Assembly: GCA_017535725.1 (NCBI GenBank)
Contig: JAFXTO010000050.1
Location: 1 to 42,773, forward strand
DNA: 42,773 bases
From: Bacteroidaceae bacterium
Lineage (GTDB): Bacteria; Bacteroidota; Bacteroidia; Bacteroidales; Bacteroidaceae
Reading direction: 5' to 3'
Below, piece by piece: positions 1,495-39,850 of this stretch. The notes beneath the pieces are model-generated. The model made no database searches and was not told the DNA's origin. It saw only the letters and a program-made list of their open reading frames with translations. The translations under genes were made by a program, and so were the position numbers. Numbering within the stretch: position 1 is the first letter of the stretch; each line of letters opens with the position of its first letter.

Positions 1495-1703
1495 AGCCCC
1501 CCGGCCCCCTAAAGGGGGTGTGAGATGAGCCCCCGCCCCCCTAAAGGGGGAGAGAGATTAGCCCCCCGGCCCCCTAAAGGGGGTGTGAGGGTGAAAATGG
1601 GGAGAGGAGGATTTTTTCGGAATAACGGAATGACGTGATAACGGAATAACGAAGCCGACTATGATTGTAATATTGAGAAGTTGAAATATTGAAAATTGGA
1701 TAT
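1495..1703. repeat. Repeat cluster between attenuator and pheA
   Basis: Three copies of a palindromic module containing CCCCCTAAAGGGGG (cores 1496-1518, 1529-1550, 1561-1583) are followed by one copy of the ATAACG module (1617-1654) and a short degenerate stretch of GTTGAAA units reaching to pheA. The same three components fill the later spacers of this operon. Confidence 0.8.
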
Positions 1704-1705
1704 AT

Positions 1706-2931: not shown

Positions 2932-4122
2932 ATGAGTAAGTATCAAGTTGACGAGAATGGTTTTTACGGAGAGTTCGGCGGAGCGTACGTGCCGGAGATT
3001 CTGTATAAGTGTGTGAAGGACTTGCAGGAGGCGTACAGGCCGATTGTGGAGAGCGAGGACTTCAAGGCGGCGTACCATGCGCTGCTGAAGGACTATGTGG
3101 GTAGGCCGTCGCCGCTGTACTTCGCTCAAAGAATGAGCGAACGCTATGGTTGTCAGCTGTACCTGAAGCGCGAGGACCTGAACCACACGGGGGCGCACAA
3201 AATCAACAACACCATCGGTCAAATCCTGCTGGCGAAGAAGATGGGTAAGACGCGTATCATCGCCGAGACGGGAGCCGGTCAACATGGAGTGGCCACGGCC
3301 ACGGTGTGCGCCCTGATGGGCATGAAGTGCGAGGTGTTCATGGGGGCTACGGATGTGGAACGACAGCACACGAACGTGGAGCGCATGAAGATGTTGGGTG
3401 CCGAGGTACACCCTGTGCGTACCGGCAACATGACGTTGAGTGACGCCTGCAGCGAGGCCATCCGCGACTGGTGCTGTCATCCGGCAGACACCTTCTACAT
3501 CGTTGGCTCAACGATGGGGCCGCATCCGTACCCAGACCTTGTGGCTCGTATGCAAAGCGTTATCAGCGAGGAGATTAAATGGCAATTAGAGGAGAAGATA
3601 GGTCGCGACTACCCCGACTACCTCATGGCATGTATCGGCGGCGGTAGCAATGCCGCGGGTACCATCTACCACTATATGGATGACGAGCGTGTGCGTATTG
3701 TGCTGGCCGAGGCTGGCGGTCACGGCTGGGACACCGATCATACGGCGGCGACCATCCATCGCGGCACCGTCGGCATCCTGCATGGCTCGAAGATGCTGGT
3801 GATGCAGGACGATGACGGACAGATCCAGGAAGCCTACACCATCAGCGCCGGCCTCGACTATCCGGGTGTCGGACCCATGCATTGCAACATGGCTCGACAA
3901 GGCCGGACACAAGTCCTGAGCATCAATGACGACGAGGCCCTGCGTGCTGGCTACGAGTTGACGCGACTGGAAGGCATTATCCCCGCCATAGAAAGTGCAC
4001 ACGCCATCGCAGCGCTCCAGAAGATGACGTTCAAGAAGGATGATGTCGTTGTGCTGACCGTCAGCGGACGAGGGGACAAGGATATTGAGACGTATTTGAG
4101 GTTTGGAAAGTTGACGAGTTGA
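2932..4122 (+). CDS. trpB: Tryptophan synthase beta subunit
   Basis: The enzyme condenses indole with L-serine to give tryptophan, working as an alpha2-beta2 complex with TrpA (9768). The 396-residue protein has the normal length. The PLP lysine is K90 in HTGAHKINN, the catalytic acid is E112 in ETGAGQHG, and the phosphate loop GGGSNAAG lies near residue 236. The ATG at 2932 gives the usual N-terminus. The last residues (GKLTS) and the TGA stop are read from the first units of the GTTGACGA repeat array that begins near 4105, so repeat DNA has replaced the original 3' end. Catalytic residues are all upstream of this. Confidence 0.97.
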   Translation: MSKYQVDENGFYGEFGGAYVPEILYKCVKDLQEAYRPIVESEDFKAAYHALLKDYVGRPSPLYFAQRMSERYGCQLYLKREDLNHTGAHKINNTIGQILLAKKMGKTRIIAETGAGQHGVATATVCALMGMKCEVFMGATDVERQHTNVERMKMLGAEVHPVRTGNMTLSDACSEAIRDWCCHPADTFYIVGSTMGPHPYPDLVARMQSVISEEIKWQLEEKIGRDYPDYLMACIGGGSNAAGTIYHYMDDERVRIVLAEAGGHGWDTDHTAATIHRGTVGILHGSKMLVMQDDDGQIQEAYTISAGLDYPGVGPMHCNMARQGRTQVLSINDDEALRAGYELTRLEGIIPAIESAHAIAALQKMTFKKDDVVVLTVSGRGDKDIETYLRFGKLTS

Positions 4123-4477
4123 CGAGTTGACGAGTTGACAAGTTGACGAGTTGGAAAGTTGACAAGTTGACGAGTTGACAAGTTGACGAGTTGGAAAGTT
4201 GAAAAGTTGACGAGTTGACAAGTTGAAAAGTTGACGAGTTGAAAGCGGCCGATGATTTTTCGTAATAACGGAATAACGTGATAACGGAATAACGAAGGGC
4301 GAGGAAGGCTGAGGAGCCCCCTGGCCCCCTAAAGGGGGGAGAGGTTGAAAGGTTGAAACATTGAAAGGTTGAAAGGTTGAAACATTGAAAGGTTGAAAGG
4401 TGGAAAAGTTGAAACATTGAAAAGTTGAAAGATTGAAAAGTTGAAAAATTGAAAAGTTGAAAGATAAAAGATAGATT
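4105..4477. repeat. trpB-trpE spacer of repeats
   Basis: A GTTGACGA/GTTGACAA-type octamer array (about 4108-4241) starts inside the end of trpB. It is followed by one ATAACG module (4242-4299), one CCCCCTAAAGGGGG palindrome (4315-4339) and a second array of GTTGAAAG/ATTGAAAC units (about 4342-4465) reaching to trpE. No gene is present. Confidence 0.9.
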
Positions 4478-5992: not shown

Positions 5993-6197
5993 AGAGCCCC
6001 CCGGCCCCCCTAAAGGGGGAGCGAGGGTGAAGGTGGGAGGAAAAATTAAAAAATTAAAGAATGAAAAATGGGGCAGGCGGTGAATTTTCGTCATAACGGA
6101 ATAACGTGATAACGGAATAACGAGGGCCGCGATAAAAAATTGAAAAGTTGAAAAGTTGAAAGGTTGAAAAGTTGAAAGGTTGAAATGCTACTTAACT
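5993..6197. repeat. trpE-trpG spacer of repeats
   Basis: A CCCCCTAAAGGGGG palindrome begins three bases after the trpE stop (5995-6019). It is followed by an A-rich stretch with AATGAAAAAT, one ATAACG module (6075-6127) and a short GTTGAAAA array (about 6137-6185) just before trpG. Confidence 0.85.
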
Positions 6198-6761: not shown

Positions 6762-7238
6762 GGTTTAAGGTTGACAAGTTGAAAAGTTGAAAAGTTGACA
6801 AGTTGACGAGTTGACAAGTTGACAAGTTGACGAGTTGACGAGTTGACGAGTTGAAAAGTTGAAAAGTTGAAAAGTTGACAAGTTGACGAGTTGACAAGTT
6901 GACAAGTTGACAAGTTGACGAGTTGACGAGTTGACAAGTTGACAAGTTGAAAGCGGCCGATGATTAGTCGGAATAACGGAATAACGTGATAACGGAATAA
7001 CGAGGGGCGAGGAAGGCTGAGGAGCCCCCTGGCCCCCTAAAGGGGGGAGAGGTTGAAAGGTTGAAACATTGAAAAGTTGAAATATTGAAAAGTTGAAACA
7101 TTGAAAAGTTGAAATATTGAAAGGTTGAAAAGTTGAAAGGTTGAAAGATTGAAAGGTTGAAACATTGAAAGGTTGAAAGGTTGAAACATTGAAAGGTTGA
7201 AAGGTTGAAAAGTTGAAAGATTGAAATATGGATTAATT
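6762..7238. repeat. trpG-trpD spacer: 23-unit octamer array and repeat modules
   Basis: Twenty-three uninterrupted 8-bp units of GTTGA(A/C)(A/G)(A/G) occupy 6770-6953. They show a higher-order period of ten units: units 2-10 match units 12-20 at eight of nine positions. One ATAACG module (6950-7008), one CCCCCTAAAGGGGG palindrome (7024-7047) and a second array mixing GTTGAAAG and ATTGAAAC units (about 7049-7225) follow, ending just before trpD. There is no gene. Confidence 0.92.
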
Positions 7239-17275: not shown

Positions 17276-17809
17276 TTATATTTCCACCTTCGTCACTGAT
17301 GCGTAATCGGGGATGTTGGCATAGCCCTGTTCCAAGGGGATGAGGCCGCCGTAGACCATCGCACAGATGATAGGACCTCCGTGGCAGAAGACGGCCACCG
17401 AAGCGTCTGGCGATAAGGTCGCTTTCAGCTCTTCGATGAAGGAGGCTACCCTGCGGTAGAGATCTTGAAAGGACTCGCCGTTGCGGGTAGGACTGTCGAG
17501 GTAGTTTTCGTAGTATTCCTTGAGTTGCGGATCTTTAATTTCGTCGAAGCGCTGCATCTCCCAGTCACCCATGTGCATCTCCTTCATCCGAGGCTCCATG
17601 AGGGCGTCGGGGTAACCACAGTAGTCTGCGAGCTTGCGGGCACGGGTGAGGGGAGAGGTGTAGACACGGTCGAACTGCAGGCCGCAGAGCTGTCGGCGGC
17701 ACGCCTCAGCCTCGATTTCAAAGTTGTTGGAAACGGGGACGTCGGTCCAACCGTAGCAGGTGCCGCGGGGGACGGAGACGCTGGTGTGGCGAATCAAATA
17801 GAGTTGCAT
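17276..17809 (-). CDS. cobC: Histidine phosphatase family protein, probable alpha-ribazole phosphatase
   Basis: The 177-residue protein has the phosphoglycerate-mutase-type LIRHT motif at the N-terminus with the phospho-accepting histidine, and the second histidine in FCHGGPI. In this setting next to cobS, cobT and cobU it most likely removes the 5'-phosphate of alpha-ribazole phosphate or of adenosylcobalamin phosphate. The family is promiscuous, so the specific role is inferred from neighbours. A 138-base repeat block separates it from cobS, while the other cob genes overlap. Confidence 0.82.
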   Translation of the reverse strand: MQLYLIRHTSVSVPRGTCYGWTDVPVSNNFEIEAEACRRQLCGLQFDRVYTSPLTRARKLADYCGYPDALMEPRMKEMHMGDWEMQRFDEIKDPQLKEYYENYLDSPTRNGESFQDLYRRVASFIEELKATLSPDASVAVFCHGGPIICAMVYGGLIPLEQGYANIPDYASVTKVEI

Positions 17810-17947
17810 TGAAAGGTTGAAATATTGAAAGGTTGAAACGTTGAAAGGTTGAGCGGCCGATGATTTGTCGTAATAACGAAATAACGTGATAACGGAATAA
17901 CGAAGGGCAGGGAAAGTAGAAAAGTTGAAAAGTTGAAGGATTGAATG
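17810..17947. repeat. cobS-cobC spacer with trp-type repeat modules
   Basis: GTTGAAAG units (about 17812-17850), one ATAACG module (17851-17908) and further GTTGAAA units fill the gap. They are the same families as in the trp spacers and are written in the same plus-strand orientation, but here the flanking genes lie on the minus strand. Relative to transcription the repeats are therefore inverted. Confidence 0.9.
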
Positions 17948-24387: not shown

Positions 24388-24431
24388 GGAAACCTACGTC
24401 CGCAAGCCCTGATGGACGTAGGTTTCCTTTT
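24388..24431 (+). terminator. Strong intrinsic terminator after nrdG
   Basis: GGAAACCTACGTCC (24388-24401) and GGACGTAGGTTTCC (24414-24427) form a perfect 14-bp stem with a 12-base loop and are followed by TTTT. Confidence 0.9.
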
Positions 24432-24489: not shown

Positions 24490-24497
24490 TAACTTTG
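24490..24497 (+). promoter_or_regulatory. -7 box of the P5C dehydrogenase-hypD operon
   Basis: TAACTTTG fits TAnnTTTG, 41 bases before the ATG. No good TTTG box lies 19-21 bases upstream, so the promoter may need an activator. I see no other promoter before the hypD activase gene. Confidence 0.6.
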
Positions 24498-24537
24498 CGG
24501 CGCATTTCGTCAAAAACACAATAACTAACAGATCAAC

Positions 24538-26163
24538 ATGCGTAATTCCATCATTACCTTTCCCCTGCCGGCCAATGAGCCGGTGAAGAGTTATCTCGCA
24601 GGCTCCCCCGAACGCCTCGCACTCGAGGCAGAACTTGAACGCCAGTCAAACATCGTCGTCGATATACCTATCATCATTGGTGGTAAGGAAATCCGCACAG
24701 GCAACACCGGTACCGTGACCTGTCCGCACGACCACGACCACATCCTCGCCACCTACCACAAGGTCAGTGAGAAGGAAGTACAGCTGGCTATCGAGACTGC
24801 GATGAAGGCGTGGGAAGAATGGTCGAAGACAGACTGGACCGTACGTGCAGGTATCGTCATGAAGATGGCGGAACTGTTGGCCACGAAGTATCGTCCCATC
24901 ATGAATGCAGCCTGCATGCTTGGACAGAGCAAGAACATCTATCAGGCAGAAATCGATTCGGCCTGTGAGACCATCGACTTCTTCAGATACAATGTCCATT
25001 ATGCTTCAAAGATCTATGCCATGCAGCCCAAGGACGGTGCTGGTAATATCAACCACACGGAGTACCGTCCTCTGGAAGGTTTCGTGCTGGCCGTGACACC
25101 TTTCAACTTTACGTCCATCGCCTCCAACCTCTGCATGACACCCGTGCTGATGGGTAACGTGGCTGTCTGGAAACCTTCCACCACCGCCCTGCTCTCTAAC
25201 TATTACCTGATGCAGCTCTACAAGGAAGCCGGGCTGCCCGATGGTGTCATCAATTTCTTGCCGGGTAGTGGTGCATTGATTGGCAAGGTTTGCACGGAAA
25301 GCAAGTACTTTGCCGGCATCCATTTCACCGGATCGACCGCCACCTTCAAGAGCCTGTGGAGTCAGGCCTGCTCGAATCTTGACCGCTACATCTCCTATCC
25401 GCGTCTGGTGGGTGAGACGGGTGGCAAGGACTTCATCTTTGTGCATCCCTCTGCTGACCCGAAAGCCGTGGCTACGGCAGCCTTTTGCGGAGCCTTTGAG
25501 TTCCAGGGACAGAAGTGCTCTGCAGCCAGCCGTATGTATATCCCGAAGAGTCTCTGGGCTGGTGTCTTGGAAGACATGAAGCGCATGGCCGCAGAAATCA
25601 AAATGGGCGACGTCCGTAATCCAATGAACTTTGTCAACGCCGTCATCGATGAGGCCAGCTTTGACAAGTGCAAGAGCTATATTGACTTCGCGGAAGCAGC
25701 CACAGATGCAAAGGTGGTGTTAGGAGGTACTTGTGACAAGAGTGTTGGCTGGTTCGTGGAACCCACGGTTATCGAGACCACCAATCCACACTTCAAGTCG
25801 ATGGAAGAGGAAATCTTCGGTCCCATCATCACGGTCTATCCCTACGACGATGATAAGGTGGAAGAGACTGCTACCTTCTGCGACGAGACCTCGCCCTACG
25901 GCCTCACAGGCGCAGTCTTCGGTCGCGACCGTCTGGCCGTGGAGAAGATTGCCGACAAGCTGGCCTACGCAGCAGGAAACTTCTACATCAATGACAAGCC
26001 GACAGGTGCTGTAGTAGGTATGCAACCCTTTGGAGGAGCACGTGCCAGTGGCACCAACGACAAGGCAGGCGGCGAGTTCAACCTTATCCGTTGGATTATC
26101 CCGAGGGTCATCAAGGAAACACTTGTAAGTCCCACAGACTATAGGTACACCTATATGAAATGA
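24538..26163 (+). CDS. 1-Pyrroline-5-carboxylate dehydrogenase (L-glutamate gamma-semialdehyde dehydrogenase)
   Basis: The enzyme oxidises P5C/glutamate semialdehyde to glutamate with NAD. At 541 residues it resembles the ALDH4-type single-function enzymes rather than the P5CDH half of PutA. The catalytic cysteine is C327 in FQGQKCSAA and the general base E293 in VGETGGKDF; WKPSTTA and NFYINDKPTGA are family motifs. No proline dehydrogenase is present in the window, but HypD encoded downstream produces P5C from hydroxyproline, which explains its place here. The stop overlaps the next start (ATGA). Confidence 0.93.
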   Translation: MRNSIITFPLPANEPVKSYLAGSPERLALEAELERQSNIVVDIPIIIGGKEIRTGNTGTVTCPHDHDHILATYHKVSEKEVQLAIETAMKAWEEWSKTDWTVRAGIVMKMAELLATKYRPIMNAACMLGQSKNIYQAEIDSACETIDFFRYNVHYASKIYAMQPKDGAGNINHTEYRPLEGFVLAVTPFNFTSIASNLCMTPVLMGNVAVWKPSTTALLSNYYLMQLYKEAGLPDGVINFLPGSGALIGKVCTESKYFAGIHFTGSTATFKSLWSQACSNLDRYISYPRLVGETGGKDFIFVHPSADPKAVATAAFCGAFEFQGQKCSAASRMYIPKSLWAGVLEDMKRMAAEIKMGDVRNPMNFVNAVIDEASFDKCKSYIDFAEAATDAKVVLGGTCDKSVGWFVEPTVIETTNPHFKSMEEEIFGPIITVYPYDDDKVEETATFCDETSPYGLTGAVFGRDRLAVEKIADKLAYAAGNFYINDKPTGAVVGMQPFGGARASGTNDKAGGEFNLIRWIIPRVIKETLVSPTDYRYTYMK

Positions 26164-27041
26164 AGACCCACCCCATGAAGAAGCAACTCTTAACCCTTAT
26201 ATGCTTTGTTGGTCTCATGGCCGCATGCAATCAGTCCGCACAACATTCCACTCCCCTCTCTAATGAAGTGGCCAGGGAGGGGCTGGGGGATGGGTCTATC
26301 CCTGAGTGTATTGTGTCTTCCGTCCCCGACTCTTTAGGGTTGGACTCCTTCTATGTGAAGTATGTGGATGTGAATGGGTTGCCGCTGGTGTCGTCATGGA
26401 GGGTGCCAGACTCCGCTTTTGTGGCAGCACACAGGACGCTCTATGCCATGACCTGTATGTTGAAGCCCGAAGTGCTGGATGCCATGATCAAAGCCAACGC
26501 CCGCGTAGCTATCATGGCTCGCTATGAGGGCACCACCGACCTGCCAGAGCACCATTACCTCATCAACGACACCGCCCTGAACTGGGATTTACGCGCGAGA
26601 GGTCTTGGAGGCACTATTGAAGAACCGCTGACAAGTTGTGCGGAGGAGAATGTGCTGGCATACCAGATAGACAAATACCATGCCGAGGATATCCTCATCC
26701 ATGAATTTGCCCACGCCATCCACTGCATCGGGCTGATGATAGCAGAACCTGATTTCGATGGACGGCTACAGCAACTCTATGAGAATGCCAAAGACCGTGG
26801 CATTCTCGAAGGCACCTACCGCATCACCGACCACATGGAATATTTCGCAGAGGCGGTGCAGGATTGGTTCAATGTCAATGCCGAGATGCCCTATGCCGAT
26901 GGTAAACATAACTGGTGTAACACCCGTGAAGAGCTGAAGGTATATGACCCTGACCTCTATGCCCTCCTCGCAGAGTACTTCCCCGAAACGGATGTGCAAA
27001 TCAGCAAACATAAAAAAGTCAACAACTGCCATAAACCATAA
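26160..27041 (+). CDS. Lipoprotein with gluzincin-type metallopeptidase motif
   Basis: The 293-residue protein has a lipoprotein signal with the lipobox cysteine C23 (GLMAAC) and is probably attached to the outer membrane. The zinc motif HEFAH (181-185, in ILIHEFAHAIH) is followed by a likely third ligand E227 or E231 in HMEYFAEAVQDWF, with TSCAEENVLAY before it. I recognise the general type but not a named family. It overlaps the P5C dehydrogenase stop by four bases. ATG 26175 is an alternative start. Residues about 31-44 are coded by a palindromic, C/G-rich stretch that may be repeat-derived. A role in breaking down proline-rich protein is inferred from context only. Confidence 0.75.
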   Translation: MKTHPMKKQLLTLICFVGLMAACNQSAQHSTPLSNEVAREGLGDGSIPECIVSSVPDSLGLDSFYVKYVDVNGLPLVSSWRVPDSAFVAAHRTLYAMTCMLKPEVLDAMIKANARVAIMARYEGTTDLPEHHYLINDTALNWDLRARGLGGTIEEPLTSCAEENVLAYQIDKYHAEDILIHEFAHAIHCIGLMIAEPDFDGRLQQLYENAKDRGILEGTYRITDHMEYFAEAVQDWFNVNAEMPYADGKHNWCNTREELKVYDPDLYALLAEYFPETDVQISKHKKVNNCHKP

Positions 27042-27043
27042 TT

Positions 27044-27103
27044 CCTCATTGGTCTTATGGGTTCCATAAGCCTCATGGGTCTCATAAGCCTCATAAGCCC
27101 ATT
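27044..27103. repeat. CTCATAAGC-type repeat between peptidase genes
   Basis: Short degenerate units (CTTATGGG, CCATAAGC, CTCATGGG, CTCATAAGC twice) fill the 68-base spacer. This family differs from the trp-spacer repeats. Confidence 0.75.
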
Positions 27104-27109
27104 CACCCC

Positions 27110-28507
27110 ATGCAAATCAGTAAAGAATCCTATATCCGTCGCCGTGCCCGCTTGAAGAAAGACCTCGGTAGTGGCCTGTTGCTTTTTCTCGGCAACGCCG
27201 AGGTGGGCATGAACTATGCCGACAACACCTATAAGTTCCGTCAGGACTCCACGTTCCTGTATTTCTTTGGCCTTGATAACCCAGATCTCGCCGCACTCAT
27301 TGATATTGATGAAGACAAGGAAATCGTCTTCGGAAACGAGCTGACCATTGATGATATCGTATGGACAGGCACGCTACCAACGTTGAAGGAACGTGCCAGC
27401 GCTTTCGGACTTACCGACACCCGTCCCATGAACGAGCTGAAGAACTACCTCGATAAAGCCCGTGGTAAGGGGCAAACCATCCATTTCCTGCCACCTTACC
27501 GTGGTGACCACCGTGTATGGTTGTGGGAACTCTTAGGGGTGGAGCCTGCGGCACAAGCATCGCGCGCGAGTGTCTTTTTTATTAAAGCCATCGTAGCACA
27601 GCGCAACCACAAGGATCTGGAGGAGATCGCTCTCATAGAGGAGTCCGTAGACTTGAGCACAGAGATGCATCTTGCAGCCTATCGCACCGTGCGGCCGGGT
27701 TGCCATGAATCCGAGGTTGCTGCTGCCGTGGAAGAGGTGGCTTGTCGCCACGGCAACGCTCTTGCTTTCCCGACGATAGCTACCGTTCAGGGACAGGTGT
27801 TGCACAACCACGGGTTCATCCATGAACTGAAGGAAGGCGACATCTTCCTACTCGATGCTGGCGCCGAGACGAAGTCGCACTATGCAGGAGACTTGTCTTC
27901 CTCAATGCCCGTAGGAGATTGTTTCACTGAGCGTAAGAAGACCATCTACGAGATTCACCTCGCCTCGTTTCAGGCGGCTGTGGACACGCTGGCCGTGGGG
28001 ATTCCTTTCCGCGATGCCCATATTGCAGCAGCCACCAAGATTTGCGAAGGCATGAGAGCCCTCGGATTGATGAAGGGAGACCCTGCTGAGGCCGCCCGCA
28101 TCGGAGCATACGCTCTCTTCTTTCCCTGCGGCCTTGGGCACATGATGGGATTGGATGTCCATGACATGGAGAACCTCGGCGAACAGTATGTCGGTTACCT
28201 CGACGGCGACAAGAAGAGTACACAGTTCGGTTTCAAGAGTCTGCGTCTGGCACGTCCTTTGGAACCAGGTTTCGTCTTCACCGTGGAACCCGGTATCTAC
28301 TTTATCCCTGAGCTGATGGACAAATGGCAGGCAGAACACCAGTTCACCGACTTTATCTGCTACGACAAACTCGGTCCTTGGCGCGACTTCACCGGTCTTC
28401 GCAACGAACTCAACTATGCTGTATTCCCAGATGGAAGCGTTCGGCAGCTGGGACATATCAAAAAGCCGATGACTGTAGAGGAAGTCTATCAAGCAAAAAG
28501 ACCCTAA
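27110..28507 (+). CDS. pepP: Xaa-Pro aminopeptidase (M24B)
   Basis: The enzyme removes the N-terminal residue from peptides with proline in position two. The 465-residue protein has a creatinase-like N-terminal domain and a pita-bread catalytic domain with the five metal ligands in DAGAETKSHYAGD (two Asp), HMMGLDVHD (His), EPGIYF (Glu) and GLRNELNYAV (Glu). There is no signal peptide, so it acts in the cytoplasm on imported peptides. In this operon it would liberate (hydroxy)proline-containing products for HypD; activity on hydroxyproline peptides is inferred. Confidence 0.93.
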   Translation: MQISKESYIRRRARLKKDLGSGLLLFLGNAEVGMNYADNTYKFRQDSTFLYFFGLDNPDLAALIDIDEDKEIVFGNELTIDDIVWTGTLPTLKERASAFGLTDTRPMNELKNYLDKARGKGQTIHFLPPYRGDHRVWLWELLGVEPAAQASRASVFFIKAIVAQRNHKDLEEIALIEESVDLSTEMHLAAYRTVRPGCHESEVAAAVEEVACRHGNALAFPTIATVQGQVLHNHGFIHELKEGDIFLLDAGAETKSHYAGDLSSSMPVGDCFTERKKTIYEIHLASFQAAVDTLAVGIPFRDAHIAAATKICEGMRALGLMKGDPAEAARIGAYALFFPCGLGHMMGLDVHDMENLGEQYVGYLDGDKKSTQFGFKSLRLARPLEPGFVFTVEPGIYFIPELMDKWQAEHQFTDFICYDKLGPWRDFTGLRNELNYAVFPDGSVRQLGHIKKPMTVEEVYQAKRP

Positions 28508-28520
28508 AATTCCAAAAGAA

Positions 28521-28566
28521 CTTAGGACTACCTAGGAAATCCTAGGGCCACTTAGGAAATTCTAGT
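28521..28566. repeat. CCTAGGAAAT-type repeat before hypD
   Basis: Units such as CTTAGGA, CCTAGGAAAT, CCTAGGG and CTTAGGAAAT follow each other; CCTAGG is itself palindromic. This is another distinct spacer repeat family. Confidence 0.75.
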
Positions 28567-28588
28567 TTATCTATAAAAAATCCCCAAG

Positions 28589-30988
28589 ATGAATTTCACT
28601 ATTAAGAACCCCGCCAACGAAGGCGGTATGAACGAGAGAATAAAAAGGTTGCGGCAGGAAAACTTCGATACGCCGACCACGCTCAGCATTGAGCGTGCAC
28701 TCATTGAGACGGAGTTTTACAAGCAGTACTATGGCACGATGCCTATCGCTGTGTTGCGAGCGCGCAACTTCTATGAAATCTGCAAGAAGAAGACTATCTA
28801 TATTGGTAAGGATGAACTGATTGTAGGCGAACGTGGCCCTGTGCCCAAGGCTGTGCCCACCTTCCCCGAACTGACCTGCCACAGTGTGGAAGACTTGCAT
28901 ACCTTGGATACCCGTGAATTGCAAAGCTACCATATCTCTCAGGAGGACATCGACACCTACGAGCGGGAGGTCATCCCTTACTGGGCAGGAAAGACTCAGC
29001 GCGAGCGCATCTTCAACCATGTTTCGAAGGAGTGGGAAGAAGCCTATCATGCAGGTGTCTTTACGGAATTCATGGAGCAGCGTGCCGCGGGACATACTGC
29101 CATGGACGGTAAGATGTACCACGAAGGTCTTCTGGACGTGAAAGCCCGCATCGAATCAAAGATAAAGAGTCTGGACTTCATCTACGATCCCGAAGCCACC
29201 GACAAACAACAGGAATTGGAGGCTATGGCCATTTCCTGTGAAGCTGCTATCCTTTTTGCCGAGAGACATGCTGAGTTGGCAGAGCAACTTGCCTCCAAAG
29301 AAACGGATCCACAGCGCCAGAAAGAATTATTGAAGATAGCTTCCGTCTGTCATCATGTTCCAGCTCATGCTCCTCGTGACCTTTGGGAAGCCATACAAAT
29401 GTACTGGTTCGTACACCTTGGCACCGTGACCGAGCTGAATGGTTGGGACAGCATGAACCCAGGCCATCTTGACCAGCACCTCTTCCCCTTCTATCAAAAA
29501 GGTCTTGAAGAAGGTACGCTGACGCGTGACAAGGCCAAGGAACTCATCTCCTGCCTCTGGATAAAGTTCAACAACCAACCAGCCCCCCCGAAGGTGGGCA
29601 TCACGGCCCTCGAAAGCGGCACTTACAACGACTTCACCAATATCAATATTGGAGGCGTAGACCGTGAAGGCAATAGTGCTGCTAATGAGATTTCCTACAT
29701 GATTCTGGAAATTCAGGAAGAACTACACGAGTTACAGCCGGGGCTCAGCATTCATATTGCAGAGAATACGCCCGATGACTTCCTGCTTGCTGGCATCAAG
29801 GTCATCCGTCAGGGGCATGGCTATCCTTCCGTTTTCAATCCAGACACGTATGTCAAAGAGATGACTCGTGCAGGCAAGACTTTGGAGGATGCCCGTGAGG
29901 GAGGCTGTTCCGGTTGCATCGAGGTGGGTGCATTCGGTAAGGAAGCTTACCTGCTGACAGGCTACCTCAACACCCCAAAGATCTTGGAGATTACGCTCAA
30001 CAACGGCATTGACCCGGAGACGGGAAAGAAACTTGGATTGGAAACAGGGAATCCGTGTGATTTCAAGAGCTTTGAGGATTTATATGAGGCCTGGCACAAG
30101 CAGATGGTGTACTTCGTGAACCTGAAGCTCAGCGTGAACAACTACATCGAACGCATGTTCTCCCTCTATGCCCCCGCGACCTTCCTCAGTCTTTATATCG
30201 ACGACTGCATCGAGAAAGGTAAGGACTATTACAGCGGCGGTGCGCGGTATAACACCACTTACATCCAGTGTACTGGCCTTGGTACCATCACCGACTGCTT
30301 CACCACCCTCAAGAAACATGTCTTTGAAGACAAGAAATATCCCATGGAGAAGATATTGGAGGCGTGTAAGAACAACTGGGAAAATGAGGAGGTCATGCGT
30401 CAATATATCCGTAACCACACGCCCTTCTTTGGTAATGATGACAAGTATGCTGACGACATAGCCGTACGCGTCTACGATGACTTGGTGAAGGCTATTGAGG
30501 GACGTCCGAACACCCGTGGCGGTCAGACTCACCTGAACATGCTTTCCACAACGTGCCATAATTACTTCGGTTCGGTCTGTGGCGCTACTCCCAACGGTCG
30601 TTTCGCCCACTTTGCTATCTCGGATGGCACCTCTCCTGCTCACGGCAGCGACAGTCACGGCCCTACCGCCGTTATCAAGTCCTTGGGCAAGCTCGATCAG
30701 ACGAAGAGTGGAGGTACATTGCTGAATGTTCGTTTTGTACCAGCTCTGCTGAGGCGTGAAGAGGATATGTGTAAGCTTGGGCATCTCATACGGACTTACT
30801 TCCGCCACGGAGGGCATCATATCCAGTTCAATATTGTGGATACGGCAACCCTGCTTGATGCCCAGCAACACCCGGATCAGTACCGTGACCTCCTTGTCCG
30901 TGTAGCAGGCTACTCTGACTACTTCAACGACATGACCGAGCAGCTGCAAAACGAAATCATCGCCCGTACAGAGAACGAAGAGGTATGA
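28589..30988 (+). CDS. hypD: trans-4-Hydroxy-L-proline dehydratase (glycyl radical enzyme)
   Basis: HypD removes water from trans-4-hydroxy-L-proline to give 1-pyrroline-5-carboxylate. The glycyl radical motif RVAGYSDYF puts the radical on G774 and the thiyl cysteine is C443 in SGCIEVGAFGKEAY, with E445 two residues on. The active-site residues I recall for the Clostridioides difficile enzyme (H160, D278, S334, F340, C434, E436, Y450, T645, G765) all occur here at a constant shift of nine: H169, D287, S343, F349, C443, E445, Y459, T654, G774. This excludes pyruvate formate-lyase and glycerol or choline enzymes. The start is ATG 28589 or ATG 28628 (MNERIKRLRQ). Confidence 0.95.
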   Translation: MNFTIKNPANEGGMNERIKRLRQENFDTPTTLSIERALIETEFYKQYYGTMPIAVLRARNFYEICKKKTIYIGKDELIVGERGPVPKAVPTFPELTCHSVEDLHTLDTRELQSYHISQEDIDTYEREVIPYWAGKTQRERIFNHVSKEWEEAYHAGVFTEFMEQRAAGHTAMDGKMYHEGLLDVKARIESKIKSLDFIYDPEATDKQQELEAMAISCEAAILFAERHAELAEQLASKETDPQRQKELLKIASVCHHVPAHAPRDLWEAIQMYWFVHLGTVTELNGWDSMNPGHLDQHLFPFYQKGLEEGTLTRDKAKELISCLWIKFNNQPAPPKVGITALESGTYNDFTNINIGGVDREGNSAANEISYMILEIQEELHELQPGLSIHIAENTPDDFLLAGIKVIRQGHGYPSVFNPDTYVKEMTRAGKTLEDAREGGCSGCIEVGAFGKEAYLLTGYLNTPKILEITLNNGIDPETGKKLGLETGNPCDFKSFEDLYEAWHKQMVYFVNLKLSVNNYIERMFSLYAPATFLSLYIDDCIEKGKDYYSGGARYNTTYIQCTGLGTITDCFTTLKKHVFEDKKYPMEKILEACKNNWENEEVMRQYIRNHTPFFGNDDKYADDIAVRVYDDLVKAIEGRPNTRGGQTHLNMLSTTCHNYFGSVCGATPNGRFAHFAISDGTSPAHGSDSHGPTAVIKSLGKLDQTKSGGTLLNVRFVPALLRREEDMCKLGHLIRTYFRHGGHHIQFNIVDTATLLDAQQHPDQYRDLLVRVAGYSDYFNDMTEQLQNEIIARTENEEV

Positions 30989-31899
30989 TTGTTTTTGATA
31001 TTAAGAGGTATGCGATAAATGATGGTCCGGGAATCCGGACCACCATTTTTCTGAAGGGATGTCCGTTGCGTTGTGTGTGGTGTCATAATCCTGAATCGTG
31101 GCGTCCAGAGCCTGAATTCCTATTCAAGCGGAAGAAATGTATTGGGTGTAACTGCTGTGGGGTGCATCCGTATCAGTTGGATTATATCAGAAAGAAAAAT
31201 GTTGAATTACGAATTAAGGATGAGTGCCCCACTCTCGCCCTTGAAATGTGTGGACGGGAGTGGAGTGTTGAGGATTTGCTGGAAGAGATAGAGAAGGAAC
31301 GGGATGTGATGATGGAAAGCGGTGGCGGAGTGACTATCAGTGGTGGAGAGCCGCTCATGCAGATGAACAATGAGAGAGTGAACGGTGAAAGATGTGATTC
31401 CCTGCTTGTTCTCCTTCGTGAACTGGGTCAGCGTGGTTTTCATCGTGTTGTGGACACCACACTCCATGCGCCTATGGAAGTAGTGCAGGAGGTGGCAGCA
31501 GAAACTGACCTATTTCTTGTAGATCTGAAGGTGATGGATGCAGAGAAACACAAGCACTATACGGGAGTGTCCAACGAACGCATCCTTTCTAACCTGCGCC
31601 TGCTTGCGGGATTGGGTGTTTCTTTCCAGATTCGTGTTCCCCTTATTGAAGGCATCAATGCCGACGAGGAGAATATAGAAGAAACAGCACGGTTTATTGA
31701 TGAATTGGTCACTCTTCCATCTTCGTTAAAGGGCGTCGCTTTATTGCCTTACCACGATGCTGGCCGTGATAAACATGCTCGTAGGGGAACCTCTTATAAT
31801 CCTTCTGGTATTGGGATGTGTACACCTTCCGATGCTGTTATTCAGCGTTGCATCAACCAGTTCGCAGCTCATGGTATTGACACCATCGTAGGAGGATAG
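30985..31899 (+). CDS. HypD activating enzyme (radical SAM)
   Basis: It installs the glycyl radical on HypD; the start overlaps the hypD stop by four bases. The 304-residue protein has the SAM cluster motif C26-C30-C33 (CPLRCVWC) and the SAM-binding ISGGEPLMQ. The auxiliary ferredoxin-like insert is short: C52, C55, C57, C58, C81 and C89, enough for one [4Fe-4S] cluster but not the two often seen in glycyl radical activases. Residues 127-139 (MNNERVNGERCDS, coded 31363-31401) interrupt the normal sequence after GGEPLMQ and look like a repeat-derived in-frame insertion. Confidence 0.92.
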   Translation: MIVFDIKRYAINDGPGIRTTIFLKGCPLRCVWCHNPESWRPEPEFLFKRKKCIGCNCCGVHPYQLDYIRKKNVELRIKDECPTLALEMCGREWSVEDLLEEIEKERDVMMESGGGVTISGGEPLMQMNNERVNGERCDSLLVLLRELGQRGFHRVVDTTLHAPMEVVQEVAAETDLFLVDLKVMDAEKHKHYTGVSNERILSNLRLLAGLGVSFQIRVPLIEGINADEENIEETARFIDELVTLPSSLKGVALLPYHDAGRDKHARRGTSYNPSGIGMCTPSDAVIQRCINQFAAHGIDTIVGG

Positions 31900-31929: not shown

Positions 31930-33597
31930 TTAGCGTTTACGTTTCTTCTTTCGTCCAGATTCTTTCTCTTTCTTTTGTGCTGTGGTTAGTGGACGTATGA
32001 TGAGACTTCTGGAAAGTCCGTTGGAGTTCCACTCAAGTTTCGGCGTACATGTAGAATTACCGGAAGAGGAAAGTTGGATGGCTGTGCTCTCATTGCCACA
32101 GCGATCTACTGCTGTAACGGCCAGATGGAGTCGGGAAAGTGCTGTGTAGACAGGGTCGATGGAGAAGTGGGATTGGGGTAGGAGGGTGGCCACGAGGTTT
32201 TCGGGGCGACTGATGTCTACAGGCCATGAGGTGGAGGCGTAGACGTTGTAGCGGAGGGATGAAGCTTCTGTTACTTCCGTGCTCCTTCCGTTTTCCCACA
32301 CAAGTTCTGTCTGACCGAAAGAGGTGGTTCGCAGTTGCAGATTCTTGGGAGCCGGAGGTGCTATGCTGTCCAGCCACGTGCAGGCAGGTGGAAGGGCTGG
32401 GAAGGCGTAGAAGTCTTGACGGAGGTAGTCGTAAAGCCCTTTTACGTTGTCGGTGAGGAACTTGCTTCGGAAATATGCTTGACCGGCAAGACCCTGTTGC
32501 CGGACGTAGTGAAGCTGACGTGTGATAGTACTCAGAGGCCAATTCTTTTCCTGCGGATGGAGGAAGTAGATGCCGAGCCCAGGTGCTACGAAGCGTTGTG
32601 ATGAGTGTTCCTGCCAATCTGCGGCGAAAGGATAGAAATGATTGCCATCGAAATACATCATGGGAAAAAGCATGTCGTGGATGCCCTGACGCAGCCAGCC
32701 TTGTGCGTCTTGATGAACGGCGTCACGAGCGTTCCATCCTCGTGAGGGGTAGCGGCTGACATCGGCGTATTTCCCTACGGGAGAGCTACTTATGCGTATC
32801 CAAGGCTTCAGCTGGTGGGTATCTTCATAGATGCGTCGCACAATGCGAGTGATGTTATTGCTGCGCCAGACAGCTTTTGACTGTCCTTTGGCTGCATACT
32901 TCTTGAAGGTAGCTGCATCGTTGAAGGAAGAGGCTCCTTCCGGGTATCGGATGTAGTCGAAGTGAATGCCATCCACGTCGTAGTGACTGATGATTTCATG
33001 GCAGATGCGCAGGAGGTAGTCTGCTGTTCCTGGGTGTCCGGGATCGAGGTAATAGGTGTCGCCATGCTTACGGCATAACTCAGGATGAGTCTTCAATACG
33101 CTTTTTGCTCCCATTTGTCGGGCGACGGCAATCTTGAAACAAGGAATGGTGACGATCCATGCATGGAGTTCCATTCCGCGGCGATGTGTTTCTTCTATCG
33201 CAAAAGCCAGAGGGTCGTAGCCAGGGTCACGTCCGATGGCTCCCGTGAGTGCTCCATCCCAAGGTTCAATGGCAGAGGGGTAGATGACAGTTCCACGGAT
33301 GCGAGTCTGGAGGAATATGGTATTGATGTTTGCAGCTTTTAGCTGGTCGAGAATTTGGCACAACTCACGTTGCTGCTGTTGGCGACTTGAAGTGTCGGTC
33401 GCTCGAGTTTTTGGCCAGTCAAGACCAAATAGCGTCGTGAGCCACACAGCACGCAGTTCGCGCTTGGGACAAGGTGTTGATTGGGTGAAGAGGCCAAAGT
33501 CCTGGGCCTTGGTACAAACAGTTATTTGCAAAAGCAAGAGTGATGCCAGAAGGAACCTCGCGCGTGTATATATATAATAAGGTGTATTTCTTGTCAT
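31930..33597 (-). CDS. DUF187 (GH10-like) secreted family protein
   Basis: The 555-residue protein has a signal peptide (about 1-31, ending TKAQ) and a TIM-barrel domain of the glycosyl-hydrolase-like 10 family, marked by KRELRAVWLTTLFGLDWP and DVDGIHFDYIRYPEG. A fibronectin-III-like domain follows (about 410-520) and the C-terminus is very basic (KKEKESGRKKKRKR). The substrate is unknown; relatives are linked to cell-envelope or peptidoglycan-glycan turnover. It lies convergently to the hypD operon, 30 bases from its end. Confidence 0.85.
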   Translation of the reverse strand: MTRNTPYYIYTRARFLLASLLLLQITVCTKAQDFGLFTQSTPCPKRELRAVWLTTLFGLDWPKTRATDTSSRQQQQRELCQILDQLKAANINTIFLQTRIRGTVIYPSAIEPWDGALTGAIGRDPGYDPLAFAIEETHRRGMELHAWIVTIPCFKIAVARQMGAKSVLKTHPELCRKHGDTYYLDPGHPGTADYLLRICHEIISHYDVDGIHFDYIRYPEGASSFNDAATFKKYAAKGQSKAVWRSNNITRIVRRIYEDTHQLKPWIRISSSPVGKYADVSRYPSRGWNARDAVHQDAQGWLRQGIHDMLFPMMYFDGNHFYPFAADWQEHSSQRFVAPGLGIYFLHPQEKNWPLSTITRQLHYVRQQGLAGQAYFRSKFLTDNVKGLYDYLRQDFYAFPALPPACTWLDSIAPPAPKNLQLRTTSFGQTELVWENGRSTEVTEASSLRYNVYASTSWPVDISRPENLVATLLPQSHFSIDPVYTALSRLHLAVTAVDRCGNESTAIQLSSSGNSTCTPKLEWNSNGLSRSLIIRPLTTAQKKEKESGRKKKRKR

Positions 33598-36898: not shown

Positions 36899-39850
36899 CT
36901 AATTTTCCTTGATTTTAGGCAATAATATGACCCCATTTTTCTTCATTCCATCTACTTTTATGGTAAAGGGCGTGTCGAAATGCACTACGCGGACGTGTTT
37001 TGTCTCTTGGGCGGCAGGCATGGAGTTGAAAAGGTCTTGGCTGTAGATGCCATCTCCGAGATAGTCGTTGATGGTGAAATATCCGACTCCAAAGCTGGTG
37101 AGGTTCTGGAAAAAGTGCGTTCCCTGACTGGGATCCACTCGGTAATTCTCCAGACCGGCTTCGACGATGATGCGCGCAGCGGAGATGTGTGGCCATTTGA
37201 CGGGGATGCCTAACCAGGGGTCGCTGCTTCCCCAGCGGCCTGGTCCCACAAGGACATAGTTCTTTCCTTGGTCAAGGAAATGGCGGTTGATGCCGGCTAT
37301 TTCTTCTGCAACTTCAGGGTTGTTTCCTGCTGACCATCCTTCGGTCTTCACGTAGACGATATCTTGCACGTCGTTGGAGATGCCGTGGCCGATGGCGTTG
37401 TATGAGCGGAGCATACAGTCTTCGTCTGGAATGGCGGAGAGATCCTCGTCAAGCATGAGCTTGTTGTCAACCATGGGTCGTATCTGCAAAAGGTAGAATT
37501 CGCCAGTCCTGTTTGCATTGAGGTTTGCGGCAAATTCTATTTCCAAAGCTCGTCGCATCTCGCTCTGTCCGTACTCCATGACCTTTTTCAGAATATCGGG
37601 CAGAGGAAAGACGTCGTGCTGAAGAACTCCGCAGAAGGTGATGACCTTGCGTCCTCCCTCGTAGATGCCATCGCGAATAACTTGGTCGTAGGGGTCGTAC
37701 GTGGAGGCGATATATTGCAGGGTGCCGTCTTTCTCGGCAGCATTTACACGCAACTTCAGCAAGTTGAAGCCGTCGTCCTTCTGGAAATCTGTTGGAGGGT
37801 GTTTCAGGTCGAGGGCGTAGAATCGTGTTTGCGTCTCTTTCAACGCAATTTCCAGTTCGCTTGTCTGCAGAACCTGATGCGGATGTGCCGGACAAACACG
37901 CAGGCATTGGCCTCCGTCGACGATGTACTTACCCAGTCCCAGCGCCAGATTCACGGTTCCCTCGTCTGCCTTTTCGTCGCCGATGGGGTAGTAGTTGACC
38001 GAACGTGCCACACCAGAGAAGGTGGGATAAAAGCGGTCTTCGTGCTGTGAGCCTACGACTTCTTGCAGGATGACGGCCATCTTCTCCTGGTCTATCACGT
38101 TGGAAGTCGCGGTCATGTATGCCTTGGAGTCGGCGTAGAAGACGCTGGCATATACTGCCTTGATGGCGTCTGAGAGCATGTGCAACCGTTCGTATTTGTC
38201 TGAAGCGTGGGGAATCATATAGGTGGCATAGATACCGGCAAAGGGCTGGTAGTGCGCGTCCTCGAGCAACGAACTGGAGCGTATGGCTATAGGGGTATCG
38301 ACTACATCGAGGAAGGTCATGAGGTCTCCGATGAGGCGTGACGGCAGGCGGGCGTGGAGGAAGTAGTGCAGGATATCCTCGTCGGGGATGTCGGATAGAG
38401 CCACCTGATAGAGTTCATTTGAATCCATGAACTCATCAAAGATATCCGTGCAGAGAACCACCGTCTTCGGTATCATCACGGAAGCGTTGTCGTAGTCGTT
38501 GAGGTCGGTATGGCGCTTGATGATGTGGTCGATGAACGCCAGACCACGTCCTTTTCCGCCCAGACTACCGTCGCCGATGCGGGCAAAGTTCGAGTAGCGG
38601 TCGAAACGTTCGCGCTGGAAGACGGCTACGACGCCCTGGTTCTTCATGCGGCGGTAGGACACGATGGCGTCGAAGATAATCTGGCGGTGCTGGTCGATGT
38701 CCTGTACGGAATTCCAGGTGATGTGCTTCAGGAATTCGGCAATGGGGAACAAGGCACGCGAACATAGCCATCGCGAGACGTTGTTGTGCTGCACGTGGTA
38801 GAGCAACGACTGCTTGGGTAGCGAGAAGATGTTGTCCTGAAGGTCCTTGAGGTTCCGTAGGCGGGCCACCTCGCCCATCGTGGTGGGGTCGCGGAAGACG
38901 AAGTCGCCGAAACCGAAGTAGTGGAGAATGAGCTTGCGCAGGTCCACCGACATCTTTTTCGAGTTCTTGTCGACGAAGCGTATCTTCAGGGGTGCGCACA
39001 ATTCTGCTTTCGAGGTCTCGGACGATTCCATGATGAGGGGGATGAACTCATCGCGTTCGCGTATATTTTTTAATAAGGTAATACCAGCCATTTCATCCAG
39101 CACTCCTTCATGGGGGAAACGGCAGTCGGAAATGACTCCGAGGGTGTTGTTTGAAAAACGGTCGTACAAGGCCCACGCCTCCTCGTAGTTACGAGCCAGC
39201 ACAATCTTTGGTCTGCCTCGCATGCGCAACGTTTCGAGCTGAGAGTTTAGGGCTTCGGTGGCGAATTCCAGACTCTGCTGCAGCACAAACTTATAGAGGT
39301 TGGGCAGAATGCTGGAGTAGAATCTCACGTTGTCCTCCACAAGCATAATCATCTGAACGCCGGCTTCAAGGTCATGTTCCAGGTTCATCTTGTCCTCGAT
39401 GAGCTTGATGATAGAGAGCAGTAGCTCGGTGTTGCCTAGCCAGCAGAAGATGTATTCGAAGGCGGACATATCCTCGTCTGCCATACGCTTGCTGATACCG
39501 TGGCTGAAGGGGGTCAGCACGACGCAGGGTATCTGGGGATGTGAGTTCTTGATGCCTCGGGCGATGTCAAAGATGTCGTTGTTGTCAGTTCCAGGCATGA
39601 CGATGACGAGGTCAAAGGATAGCCGCTCCATCTGCATCAGCGCCTCTTCCTCCGAAGCGACCTGAATGAAGCGAGGCGGATAGCGAAGGCCTAACTTGGC
39701 GTATTCGTCAAATATTTTCTCGTCCACGCGTCCGTCATCTTCCAGCATGAAAGCATCGTAAGGGTTGGCGATGAGCAGCACGTTGAAGATGCGTCGTGCC
39801 ATGAGGTCGACAAACGAGGTGTCGCGCAGTATCAGAGTCTCTTTTTTCAT
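36899..39850 (-). CDS. PEP-synthase-like protein with two receiver domains
   Basis: A 983-residue cytoplasmic protein, often labelled phosphoenolpyruvate synthase in this phylum. Residues about 20-155 form a receiver-like domain without a phospho-acceptor aspartate (VIVMPG). Residues about 165-315 form a second receiver with an intact acidic pair (E172, D173), acceptor D242 in VISDCRFP, S276/S277 and K295. From about 430 comes the PPDK/PEP-synthase ATP-grasp domain (SLGGKGRGLAF, AIRSSSLLEDAHYQPFAG). I find no phosphohistidine swivel domain (TGG-x-TSH) and no PEP/pyruvate barrel; the C-terminus instead has GPGRWGSSDPWLG and a unique end. It cannot be a complete PEP synthase; the true reaction is unknown. 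Confidence 0.85.
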   Translation of the reverse strand: MKKETLILRDTSFVDLMARRIFNVLLIANPYDAFMLEDDGRVDEKIFDEYAKLGLRYPPRFIQVASEEEALMQMERLSFDLVIVMPGTDNNDIFDIARGIKNSHPQIPCVVLTPFSHGISKRMADEDMSAFEYIFCWLGNTELLLSIIKLIEDKMNLEHDLEAGVQMIMLVEDNVRFYSSILPNLYKFVLQQSLEFATEALNSQLETLRMRGRPKIVLARNYEEAWALYDRFSNNTLGVISDCRFPHEGVLDEMAGITLLKNIRERDEFIPLIMESSETSKAELCAPLKIRFVDKNSKKMSVDLRKLILHYFGFGDFVFRDPTTMGEVARLRNLKDLQDNIFSLPKQSLLYHVQHNNVSRWLCSRALFPIAEFLKHITWNSVQDIDQHRQIIFDAIVSYRRMKNQGVVAVFQRERFDRYSNFARIGDGSLGGKGRGLAFIDHIIKRHTDLNDYDNASVMIPKTVVLCTDIFDEFMDSNELYQVALSDIPDEDILHYFLHARLPSRLIGDLMTFLDVVDTPIAIRSSSLLEDAHYQPFAGIYATYMIPHASDKYERLHMLSDAIKAVYASVFYADSKAYMTATSNVIDQEKMAVILQEVVGSQHEDRFYPTFSGVARSVNYYPIGDEKADEGTVNLALGLGKYIVDGGQCLRVCPAHPHQVLQTSELEIALKETQTRFYALDLKHPPTDFQKDDGFNLLKLRVNAAEKDGTLQYIASTYDPYDQVIRDGIYEGGRKVITFCGVLQHDVFPLPDILKKVMEYGQSEMRRALEIEFAANLNANRTGEFYLLQIRPMVDNKLMLDEDLSAIPDEDCMLRSYNAIGHGISNDVQDIVYVKTEGWSAGNNPEVAEEIAGINRHFLDQGKNYVLVGPGRWGSSDPWLGIPVKWPHISAARIIVEAGLENYRVDPSQGTHFFQNLTSFGVGYFTINDYLGDGIYSQDLFNSMPAAQETKHVRVVHFDTPFTIKVDGMKKNGVILLPKIKEN

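What the first reader, a model, noticed from the sequence alone, without database searches (positions are those of the whole stretch)
24490..31899. Candidate operon for (hydroxy)proline peptide catabolism built on HypD
P5C dehydrogenase, a lipoprotein metallopeptidase, Xaa-Pro aminopeptidase, HypD and its activase lie on one strand with four-base overlaps or spacers below 85 bases and no internal promoter. HypD yields P5C, which the dehydrogenase turns into glutamate. Known HypD settings mostly reduce P5C to proline by ProC; here the coupling is oxidative. Collagen-type peptides would give the organism glutamate, carbon and NADH.
Basis: partly seen in the sequence, partly recalled or inferred. 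Interest (0 to 1): 0.8.

Follow-up and report, generated by a model that had tools for sequence, protein, structure and literature searches.

The report
Gene cluster turning hydroxyproline into glutamate
A bacterium whose close relatives live mostly in ruminant stomachs carries neighbouring genes that probably clip hydroxyproline-containing peptides, dehydrate the hydroxyproline with a radical enzyme and oxidise the product to glutamate; parts of the set recur in relatives, and one gene is an undescribed surface peptidase.

Summary
The five genes are present at 24,538-31,899 on one strand. Four are clear: TIGR01236 P5C dehydrogenase, a prolidase-like M24 peptidase, HypD (over its curated cut-off, 12 of 12 active-site residues) and a radical-SAM activase. 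The fifth is a lipoprotein HExxH metallopeptidase of no named family. The association exceeds chance: in 107 non-redundant close relatives, P5C dehydrogenase lies in the hypD stretch in 23, the lipoprotein in 44 and the M24 peptidase in 53; the window's nrdD and nrdG do so in 2. Of 201 genomes of the family, 24 have this P5C dehydrogenase and 23 of those have HypD (46 of 201 do); 22 of the 24 lack PF01619 proline dehydrogenase. Oxidative Hyp-P5C-glutamate is the best reading, by context only; no chemistry was measured. Limits: the set comes apart (in one genus dehydrogenase-lipoprotein-M24 sits away from hypD); two genomes of the window's own genus have proC in the hypD run, and another genus has proBA. 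Collagen as source is not indicated: 26 of 80 named relatives have ruminant gut-site names and 30 more RUG/RUI names, so plant Hyp-rich protein is as likely. The 4-base overlap of genes 1 and 2 probably vanishes (conserved start 15 bases later). The lipoprotein peptidase is the most novel part.

The parts
24388..24427 (+). 14-nt perfect inverted repeat followed by T-rich tail, likely terminator of nrdG and 5' boundary of the cluster
   Evidence: not listed by the terminator scan, whose loop limit is 8 nt; the loop here is 12
24490..24497 (+). TAACTTTG, match to TAnnTTTG (-7 element of Bacteroidetes promoters; motif recalled), 40 nt before the first gene
   Evidence: 28 matches in window, 14.2 expected
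24538..26163 (+). P5C (glutamate semialdehyde) dehydrogenase, ALDH4 type; QGQKCSA motif with Cys327
   Evidence: TIGR01236 748.4 bits over cut-off; PDB P5CDH 4idm 545 bits; motif position
26175..27041 (+). Lipoprotein zinc-metallopeptidase candidate, HEFAH 181-185 and EYFAEA 227-232, lipobox Cys23 (numbers from ATG 26160); likely start 26175
   Evidence: alignment A1 of 32, H181 E182 H185 E227 E231 C23 invariant; no hit for the window protein; only weak matches in homologues
27110..28507 (+). M24B X-Pro peptidase, prolidase-like (metal ligands D249 D261 H344 E393 E433; Arg379 aligned with prolidase R398)
   Evidence: the human numbering is recalled
28589..30988 (+). [quoted passage not shown] Cys443, Glu445, Gly774)
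   Evidence: NF043068 over cut-off; PDB 6vxc 935 bits; 12 of 12 active-site residues
30985..31899 (+). Radical-SAM glycyl-radical activase (CPLRCVWC)
   Evidence: TIGR02494 over cut-off, NF043069 not over cut-off; motif

Best explanation
A (hydroxy)proline-peptide catabolic cluster of an anaerobic member of the Bacteroidales, probably from a herbivore gut. Proposed working: the lipoprotein metallopeptidase cuts Pro/Hyp-containing proteins or peptides in the cell envelope (inferred). Peptides are imported by a transporter encoded elsewhere (inferred). The prolidase-like M24 enzyme hydrolyses X-Pro and X-Hyp dipeptides and frees the imino acid (inferred from residues). HypD, charged by the activase, dehydrates trans-4-hydroxy-L-proline to P5C (supported by family score and conserved active site, not assayed). 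The ALDH4-type dehydrogenase oxidises P5C/glutamate semialdehyde to glutamate with NAD+ (supported by family; cofactor from general knowledge). Free proline itself is probably not oxidised in this genome, since no PF01619 proline dehydrogenase was found. ProC elsewhere in the genome can still draw P5C to proline.
For: Families over cut-off and complete HypD active site in the window and in 218 of 218 surveyed homologues. Co-location: P5CDH 23, lipoprotein 44, M24 53 of 107 non-redundant loci with HypD at least 75% identical, 20, 39 and 52 of them within 4 kb and 23, 41 and 50 on hypD's strand, against 2 each for nrdD and nrdG and 0 for the GDH and GHL10 neighbours. Order P5CDH-lipoprotein-M24-HypD-activase, other genes allowed between, in 12 of 107; rearranged versions keep the same genes (L079, L090, L088, L091). 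Genome co-occurrence: 23 of 24 P5CDH genomes have HypD, 46 of 201 overall, Fisher 1.8e-16; close lipoprotein relatives (56% identity or more) 24 of 25 (not corrected for kinship). PF01619 in 2 of 24 P5CDH genomes, not found in the window's; ornithine aminotransferase over cut-off in 1 of 24. Another oxidative partner elsewhere: PutA-type genes in 5 of 219 hypD stretches, four of them in line with hypD or its activase (domains checked for L095 and L225).
Against: No expression or enzyme data. Linkage is loose: in several genomes P5CDH-lipoprotein(-M24) is far from hypD, and of the five gene types 35 of 107 loci show only hypD and activase and 14 only hypD, partly from contig ends. 80 of the 107 came from a search that kept the 80 best of 568 candidates, so the sample leans to close relatives. 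The more distant hypD loci have no such P5CDH or lipoprotein (0 of 106). Counting lipoprotein relatives down to about 40% identity, only 24 of 36 genomes have HypD. Within the window's own genus two genomes carry proC in the hypD run (L247, L250). The window's genome is about 76% complete, so absences there are weak. The only other P5CDH genomes of the own genus in the sample, G369 and G401, both do have a proline dehydrogenase. No transporter or iminopeptidase in the cluster.
Confidence: 0.7

Rival explanations
1. Assimilatory use: HypD supplies P5C mainly for proline synthesis through ProC; the P5C dehydrogenase only removes excess P5C or serves other amino acids.
For: ProC exists in the genome in a proC-proB-proA run. 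In relatives hypD lies with proBA (8 of 107) or proC (2 of 107).
Against: Here ProC is on another contig and P5CDH is in the cluster; P5CDH tracks HypD in 23 of 24 genomes.
Confidence: 0.16
2. Generic proline/arginine catabolism: P5CDH and the peptidases handle proline or ornithine, and hypD is a bystander.
For: P5CDH-lipoprotein-M24 stands without adjacent hypD in one genus; two congeners hold a PF01619 proline dehydrogenase; another genus has a SoxA/DAO-like flavoprotein between these genes that could oxidise proline.
Against: No PF01619 in 22 of 24 and ornithine aminotransferase over cut-off in only 1 of 24 P5CDH genomes; 23 of 24 keep HypD.
Confidence: 0.11
3. The glycyl radical enzyme of this clade has drifted to another substrate (another hydroxyproline isomer).
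For: It scores just above the HypD cut-off (1143.8 against 1100), is 49.7% identical to the C. difficile enzyme, and its activase misses the HypD-activase equivalog.
Against: All 12 residues named for Hyp binding and catalysis are conserved in 218 of 218 (residues from passages of PMC7077986).
Confidence: 0.03

Closest known systems
HypD-P5CR (ProC) pathway of C. difficile and other Clostridia
   Same: HypD and its activase make P5C from Hyp
   Different: There P5C is reduced to proline for Stickland fermentation (PMC7077986, PMC9044972, passages); here the cluster holds a P5C dehydrogenase and peptidases and no proC
PutA / proline dehydrogenase-P5CDH oxidation of proline
   Same: P5C oxidised to glutamate by an aldehyde dehydrogenase
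   Different: P5C is made by a glycyl radical dehydratase, not by flavin-linked proline oxidation; no PF01619 found in this genome
ATLF/M34 and M90 gluzincin peptidases (lethal-factor-like domain, MtfA)
   Same: HEFAH motif followed by an E-Y-F-A-E motif; weak profile similarity
   Different: No match over a curated cut-off for the window protein; a lipoprotein in a Hyp cluster; in one relative of another genus the domain follows a GH97 enzyme (L276)

Membership tests
[quoted passage not shown]
   NF043068 1143.8 against 1100 bits
[quoted passage not shown]
   12 of 12 in the window
[quoted passage not shown]
   needs assay
HypD activase NF043069 | Above equivalog cut-off | tested here: not met
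   263.2 against 425; general TIGR02494 is met
P5C dehydrogenase TIGR01236 (ALDH4) | Above equivalog cut-off; catalytic Cys in QGQKCSA | tested here: met
   748.4 against 613.6
Xaa-Pro aminopeptidase PRK10879 | Above equivalog cut-off | tested here: not met
   137.8 against 465
Prolidase (Xaa-Pro dipeptidase) | Metal ligands and Arg398 equivalent | tested here: met
   64 of 64 rows (63 relatives and the window); role of R398 in dipeptide carboxylate binding is recalled
Prolidase (Xaa-Pro dipeptidase) PRK13607 | Above equivalog cut-off | tested here: not met
   119.6 against 339
ATLF domain (Pfam PF07737) | Above gathering score | tested here: not met
   window protein no hit; 23 of 32 rows match weakly, best E 1.8e-4; two further relatives 21.0 and 19.7 bits against 27.4
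Peptidase M90 (Pfam PF06167) | Above gathering score | tested here: not met
   window protein 10.5 against 26.2 bits
HypD-ProC Stickland unit | proC beside hypD | tested here: not met
   the one ProC found lies on another contig in a proC-proB-proA run

The most novel reading that the evidence does not exclude
The lipoprotein founds an undescribed family of surface metallopeptidases that cut hydroxyproline- or proline-rich proteins (plant extensin-like or collagen-like) and that evolved together with anaerobic Hyp oxidation, so that these bacteria hold a complete route from Hyp-rich protein to glutamate. Its relatives, one near a nodA-type gene on a Rhizobium plasmid and one fused to GH97 in another genus of the family, would use the same cut on plant wall glycoproteins.
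Probability: 0.28. Interest if true: 0.75.

Novelty: new variant of a known kind. Interest (0 to 1): 0.5.

Why it matters
HypD is called one of the most abundant glycyl radical enzymes of the healthy human gut (PMC7077986, citing Levin 2017), but the physiology described in the papers I saw is that of Clostridia that reduce P5C to proline. A recurrent P5CDH-peptidase-HypD set in Bacteroidales, replaced by proC or proBA in close relatives, gives testable genomes in which Hyp should serve as carbon, nitrogen and reductant source, and names an unstudied peptidase family as the candidate entry step.

Tried and rejected
Considered and rejected: collagen as the indicated source (no collagenase match among the five genes; titles of relatives). 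The glutamate dehydrogenase at 33839 as a sixth member (0 of 107 relatives). Filing the lipoprotein under ATLF/M34 or M90. Svx peptidases of plant pathogens as relatives: known to me only from passages of PMC9266454 and a listing; their sequences were not compared. The SoxA/DAO-like 1123-aa protein of L289 as a proven proline dehydrogenase (domains only; best NCBIfam match soxA 63.8 bits against a cut-off of 1164; only a 40-residue match in the window's genome). Fisher values are not corrected for kinship. A parsimony count on a FastTree HypD tree of 87 rows gave 11 changes for P5CDH and 17 each for lipoprotein and M24; no shuffle control was printed, so only patchiness is claimed.

Led nowhere: structure prediction (off); the -33 promoter box (no clear match by eye); paper search for extensin plus hydroxyproline plus rumen plus Prevotella (0 papers).

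Dropped rows: L221 (hypD in pieces) from the 220 hypD stretches, leaving 219; one short HypD, leaving 218; 5 near-duplicates, leaving 213. G177 (short contig) was over the cut-off but was not fetched again at more length. Six genomes with HypD below the cut-off, five of them only as fragments, were counted as HypD-positive; with over-cut-off genomes only, it is 19 of 24.
Full report
WHAT IS THERE. The five ORFs are as reported. Gene 1 is an ALDH4-type P5C dehydrogenase: TIGR01236 748.4 bits over a cut-off of 613.6; the 8 PDB sequences matched at E 1e-80 are all named P5C dehydrogenases. Gene 4 is HypD (PDB 6vxc): the 12 residues that PMC7077986 (abstract, first of eleven parts of the text, and passages seen) names around the substrate and radical site are present, and also in 218 of 218 surveyed homologues. 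Gene 5 is a glycyl-radical activase that passes the general model but not the HypD-activase equivalog. Gene 3 is an M24B peptidase. It passes neither the aminopeptidase P nor the prolidase equivalog cut-off; its best PDB matches are called Xaa-Pro dipeptidase (144.5 bits for the best, against 127.2 for the best called aminopeptidase P), and the metal ligands and the Arg398 equivalent are kept in 64 of 64 rows. So prolidase is the better name; the human numbering and the meaning of Arg398 are recalled. Gene 2 is a lipoprotein with lipobox Cys23, HExxH and EYxAE invariant in 32 rows. The window protein has no hit in Pfam or NCBIfam at E 0.001; homologues match ATLF, M90 or lipoprotein models weakly; a profile search of the PDB gave one lethal-factor-domain chain at E 0.072.

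TRANSCRIPTION UNIT. A perfect inverted repeat with T-rich tail (24388-24427) and a TAnnTTTG element (24490-24497) lie before gene 1. The next gene downstream is convergent (31930-33597). Spacers are 11 (with start 26175), 68, 81 and -4 nt. This looks like one unit, but no transcript was seen and the sigma-70 and terminator consensus scans found no excess of sites.

IS THE NEIGHBOURHOOD MORE THAN CHANCE? 219 of 220 held a usable hypD; 88 are about 50% identical to the window HypD and 131 at least 60%. In these the stretch (up to about 10 kb each side, often cut by contig ends) holds the activase in 86, M24 in 53, lipoprotein in 44, P5CDH in 23, proBA in 8, proC in 2, PutA in 2. Within 4 kb: M24 52, lipoprotein 39, P5CDH 20. 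The window's non-member neighbours serve as a control: nrdD 2, nrdG 2, GDH 0, GHL10 0 of 107. In 18 loci at 60-75%: P5CDH 0, lipoprotein 0, M24 1. In the 88 distant loci: P5CDH 0, lipoprotein 0, M24 7, PutA 3, proC 1, S37 peptidase 17. Peptidases of other types also occur near hypD (M64, S9/DPP4-like, C69, a second M24 enzyme of about 598 aa), and a POT peptide transporter in 5 of the 9 proBA loci; for these no control was run.

CO-OCCURRENCE. In 201 genomes of the family (the window's included), TIGR01236 P5CDH at E 1e-100 is in 24. The lipoprotein is in 36 at E 1e-8, of which 25 have a match of 56% identity or more (sorted). HypD is in 46: 40 over cut-off and 6 below it, five of these as fragments. 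23 of 24 P5CDH genomes, 24 of 25 close-lipoprotein genomes and 24 of all 36 lipoprotein genomes have HypD (Fisher 1.8e-16, 2.4e-17 and 2.8e-10, uncorrected for kinship; over-cut-off HypD only: 19 of 24, 1.6e-11). Within the own genus, 3 of 5 listed HypD genomes have P5CDH and 0 of 8 listed without HypD; in genus g211, 5 of 5 and 0 of 6 (listed rows only). By my reading of the match coordinates, the lipoprotein lies within about 2.2 kb of P5CDH in 20 of 24. PF01619 is found in 2 of 24 (G369 and G401, congeners of the window) and not in the window's genome. Ornithine aminotransferase passes its cut-off in 1 of 24; 22 others have only a weaker match of the kind that also appears in all 14 control genomes. 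So for most of these genomes HypD is the only dedicated source of P5C that I found, apart from proline synthesis.

HOW FIRMLY LINKED. The set is not rigid. P5CDH, lipoprotein, M24, HypD and activase in that order and on one strand, other genes allowed between, occur in 12 of 107. In three genomes of genus g202 whose stretch I read (L277-L279), P5CDH-lipoprotein-M24 stand together without hypD; hypD is on another contig. In G369, of the window's genus, P5CDH-lipoprotein-M24 and hypD are about 13 kb apart with other genes between. In genus g211 a CotH-like, a SoxA/DAO-like flavoprotein and a GH94 gene are interleaved (L289), and the lipoprotein holds two peptidase domains. In the window's own genus G329 and G415 carry proC-M24-hypD-activase. 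On a FastTree HypD tree of 87 rows P5CDH presence changes 11 times at least. The reading: HypD is a plug-in P5C source whose partner (P5CDH, PutA, ProC or ProBA) varies between close relatives.

SOURCE OF HYP. Of the 80 named relatives, 26 titles name a ruminant gut site (rumen, omasum, reticulum, abomasum, two duodenum), 30 more bear RUG/RUI names (rumen genome catalogues, recalled), and the other 24 include 3 further deer/sheep and 3 horse-faeces genomes. Hyp there may come from plant wall glycoproteins as well as animal protein; this is inference. tblastn finds lipoprotein relatives (under 60% identity) on 53 plasmids, 51 from Rhizobium; of the two I opened, one lies near a NodA-family gene and one, split in two frames, does not. 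One relative in another genus of the family is fused behind GH97. These are leads toward plant material, not proof.

LITERATURE. PMC7077986 says in its Figure 1 legend that Hyp may be catabolised for carbon and nitrogen, so oxidation was foreseen. PMC9044972 (passages) says a subset of hypD holders, largely Clostridia, have an adjacent P5CR. PMC11574389 and PMC12899673 (passages) give the reduction-to-proline route. The listings (15 of 139 shown) show no paper whose title or abstract start describes hypD clustered with a P5C dehydrogenase or this lipoprotein. Levin 2017 and Huang 2018 are not held and may discuss it, so I do not claim it is unpublished.

VERDICT. Observation confirmed; interpretation partly supported; a new variant of a known kind, with an unnamed peptidase family as its most open part.

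Noticed in passing
window 1618-1711, 2598-2921, 4103-4473, 6041-6185, 6770-7226, 17807-17937: Degenerate 8-bp-period tandem repeats (GTTGAAAA-like), in most of these places on both sides of a CGTAATAACGGAATAA-like core, in the first 18 kb.
   Followed up: no
window 27044-27099 and 28523-28562: Both spacers inside the cluster hold short degenerate repeats (9-bp CATAAGCCT units; two 20-bp TAGGACTACCTAGGAAATCC-like units).
   Followed up: no
L298 6001-6882 (NZ_CP104160.1 113906-114787): A relative of the lipoprotein peptidase, annotated glycoside hydrolase, lies near a NodA-family gene on a Rhizobium plasmid (one LysR gene between); 51 of the 53 plasmids with a relative are from Rhizobium.
   Followed up: partly
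L230, L232, L234, L252-L255, L257, L260: In one genus hypD and activase are followed by proB-proA, in 5 of these 9 loci with a POT peptide transporter gene just upstream: a likely assimilatory use of Hyp.
   Followed up: partly
L289 8032-11403: 1123-aa fused Fer2/Pyr_redox/4Fe-4S/BFD/DAO flavoprotein between the lipoprotein and M24 genes, a candidate proline dehydrogenase of another type.
   Followed up: partly
L276 1174-3894: GH97 glycoside hydrolase with a C-terminal domain homologous to the lipoprotein peptidase (42% identity; weak ATLF hit).
   Followed up: no
window 36899-39850 (-): 983-aa protein with PPDK ATP-binding domain and a weak response-regulator match.
   Followed up: no
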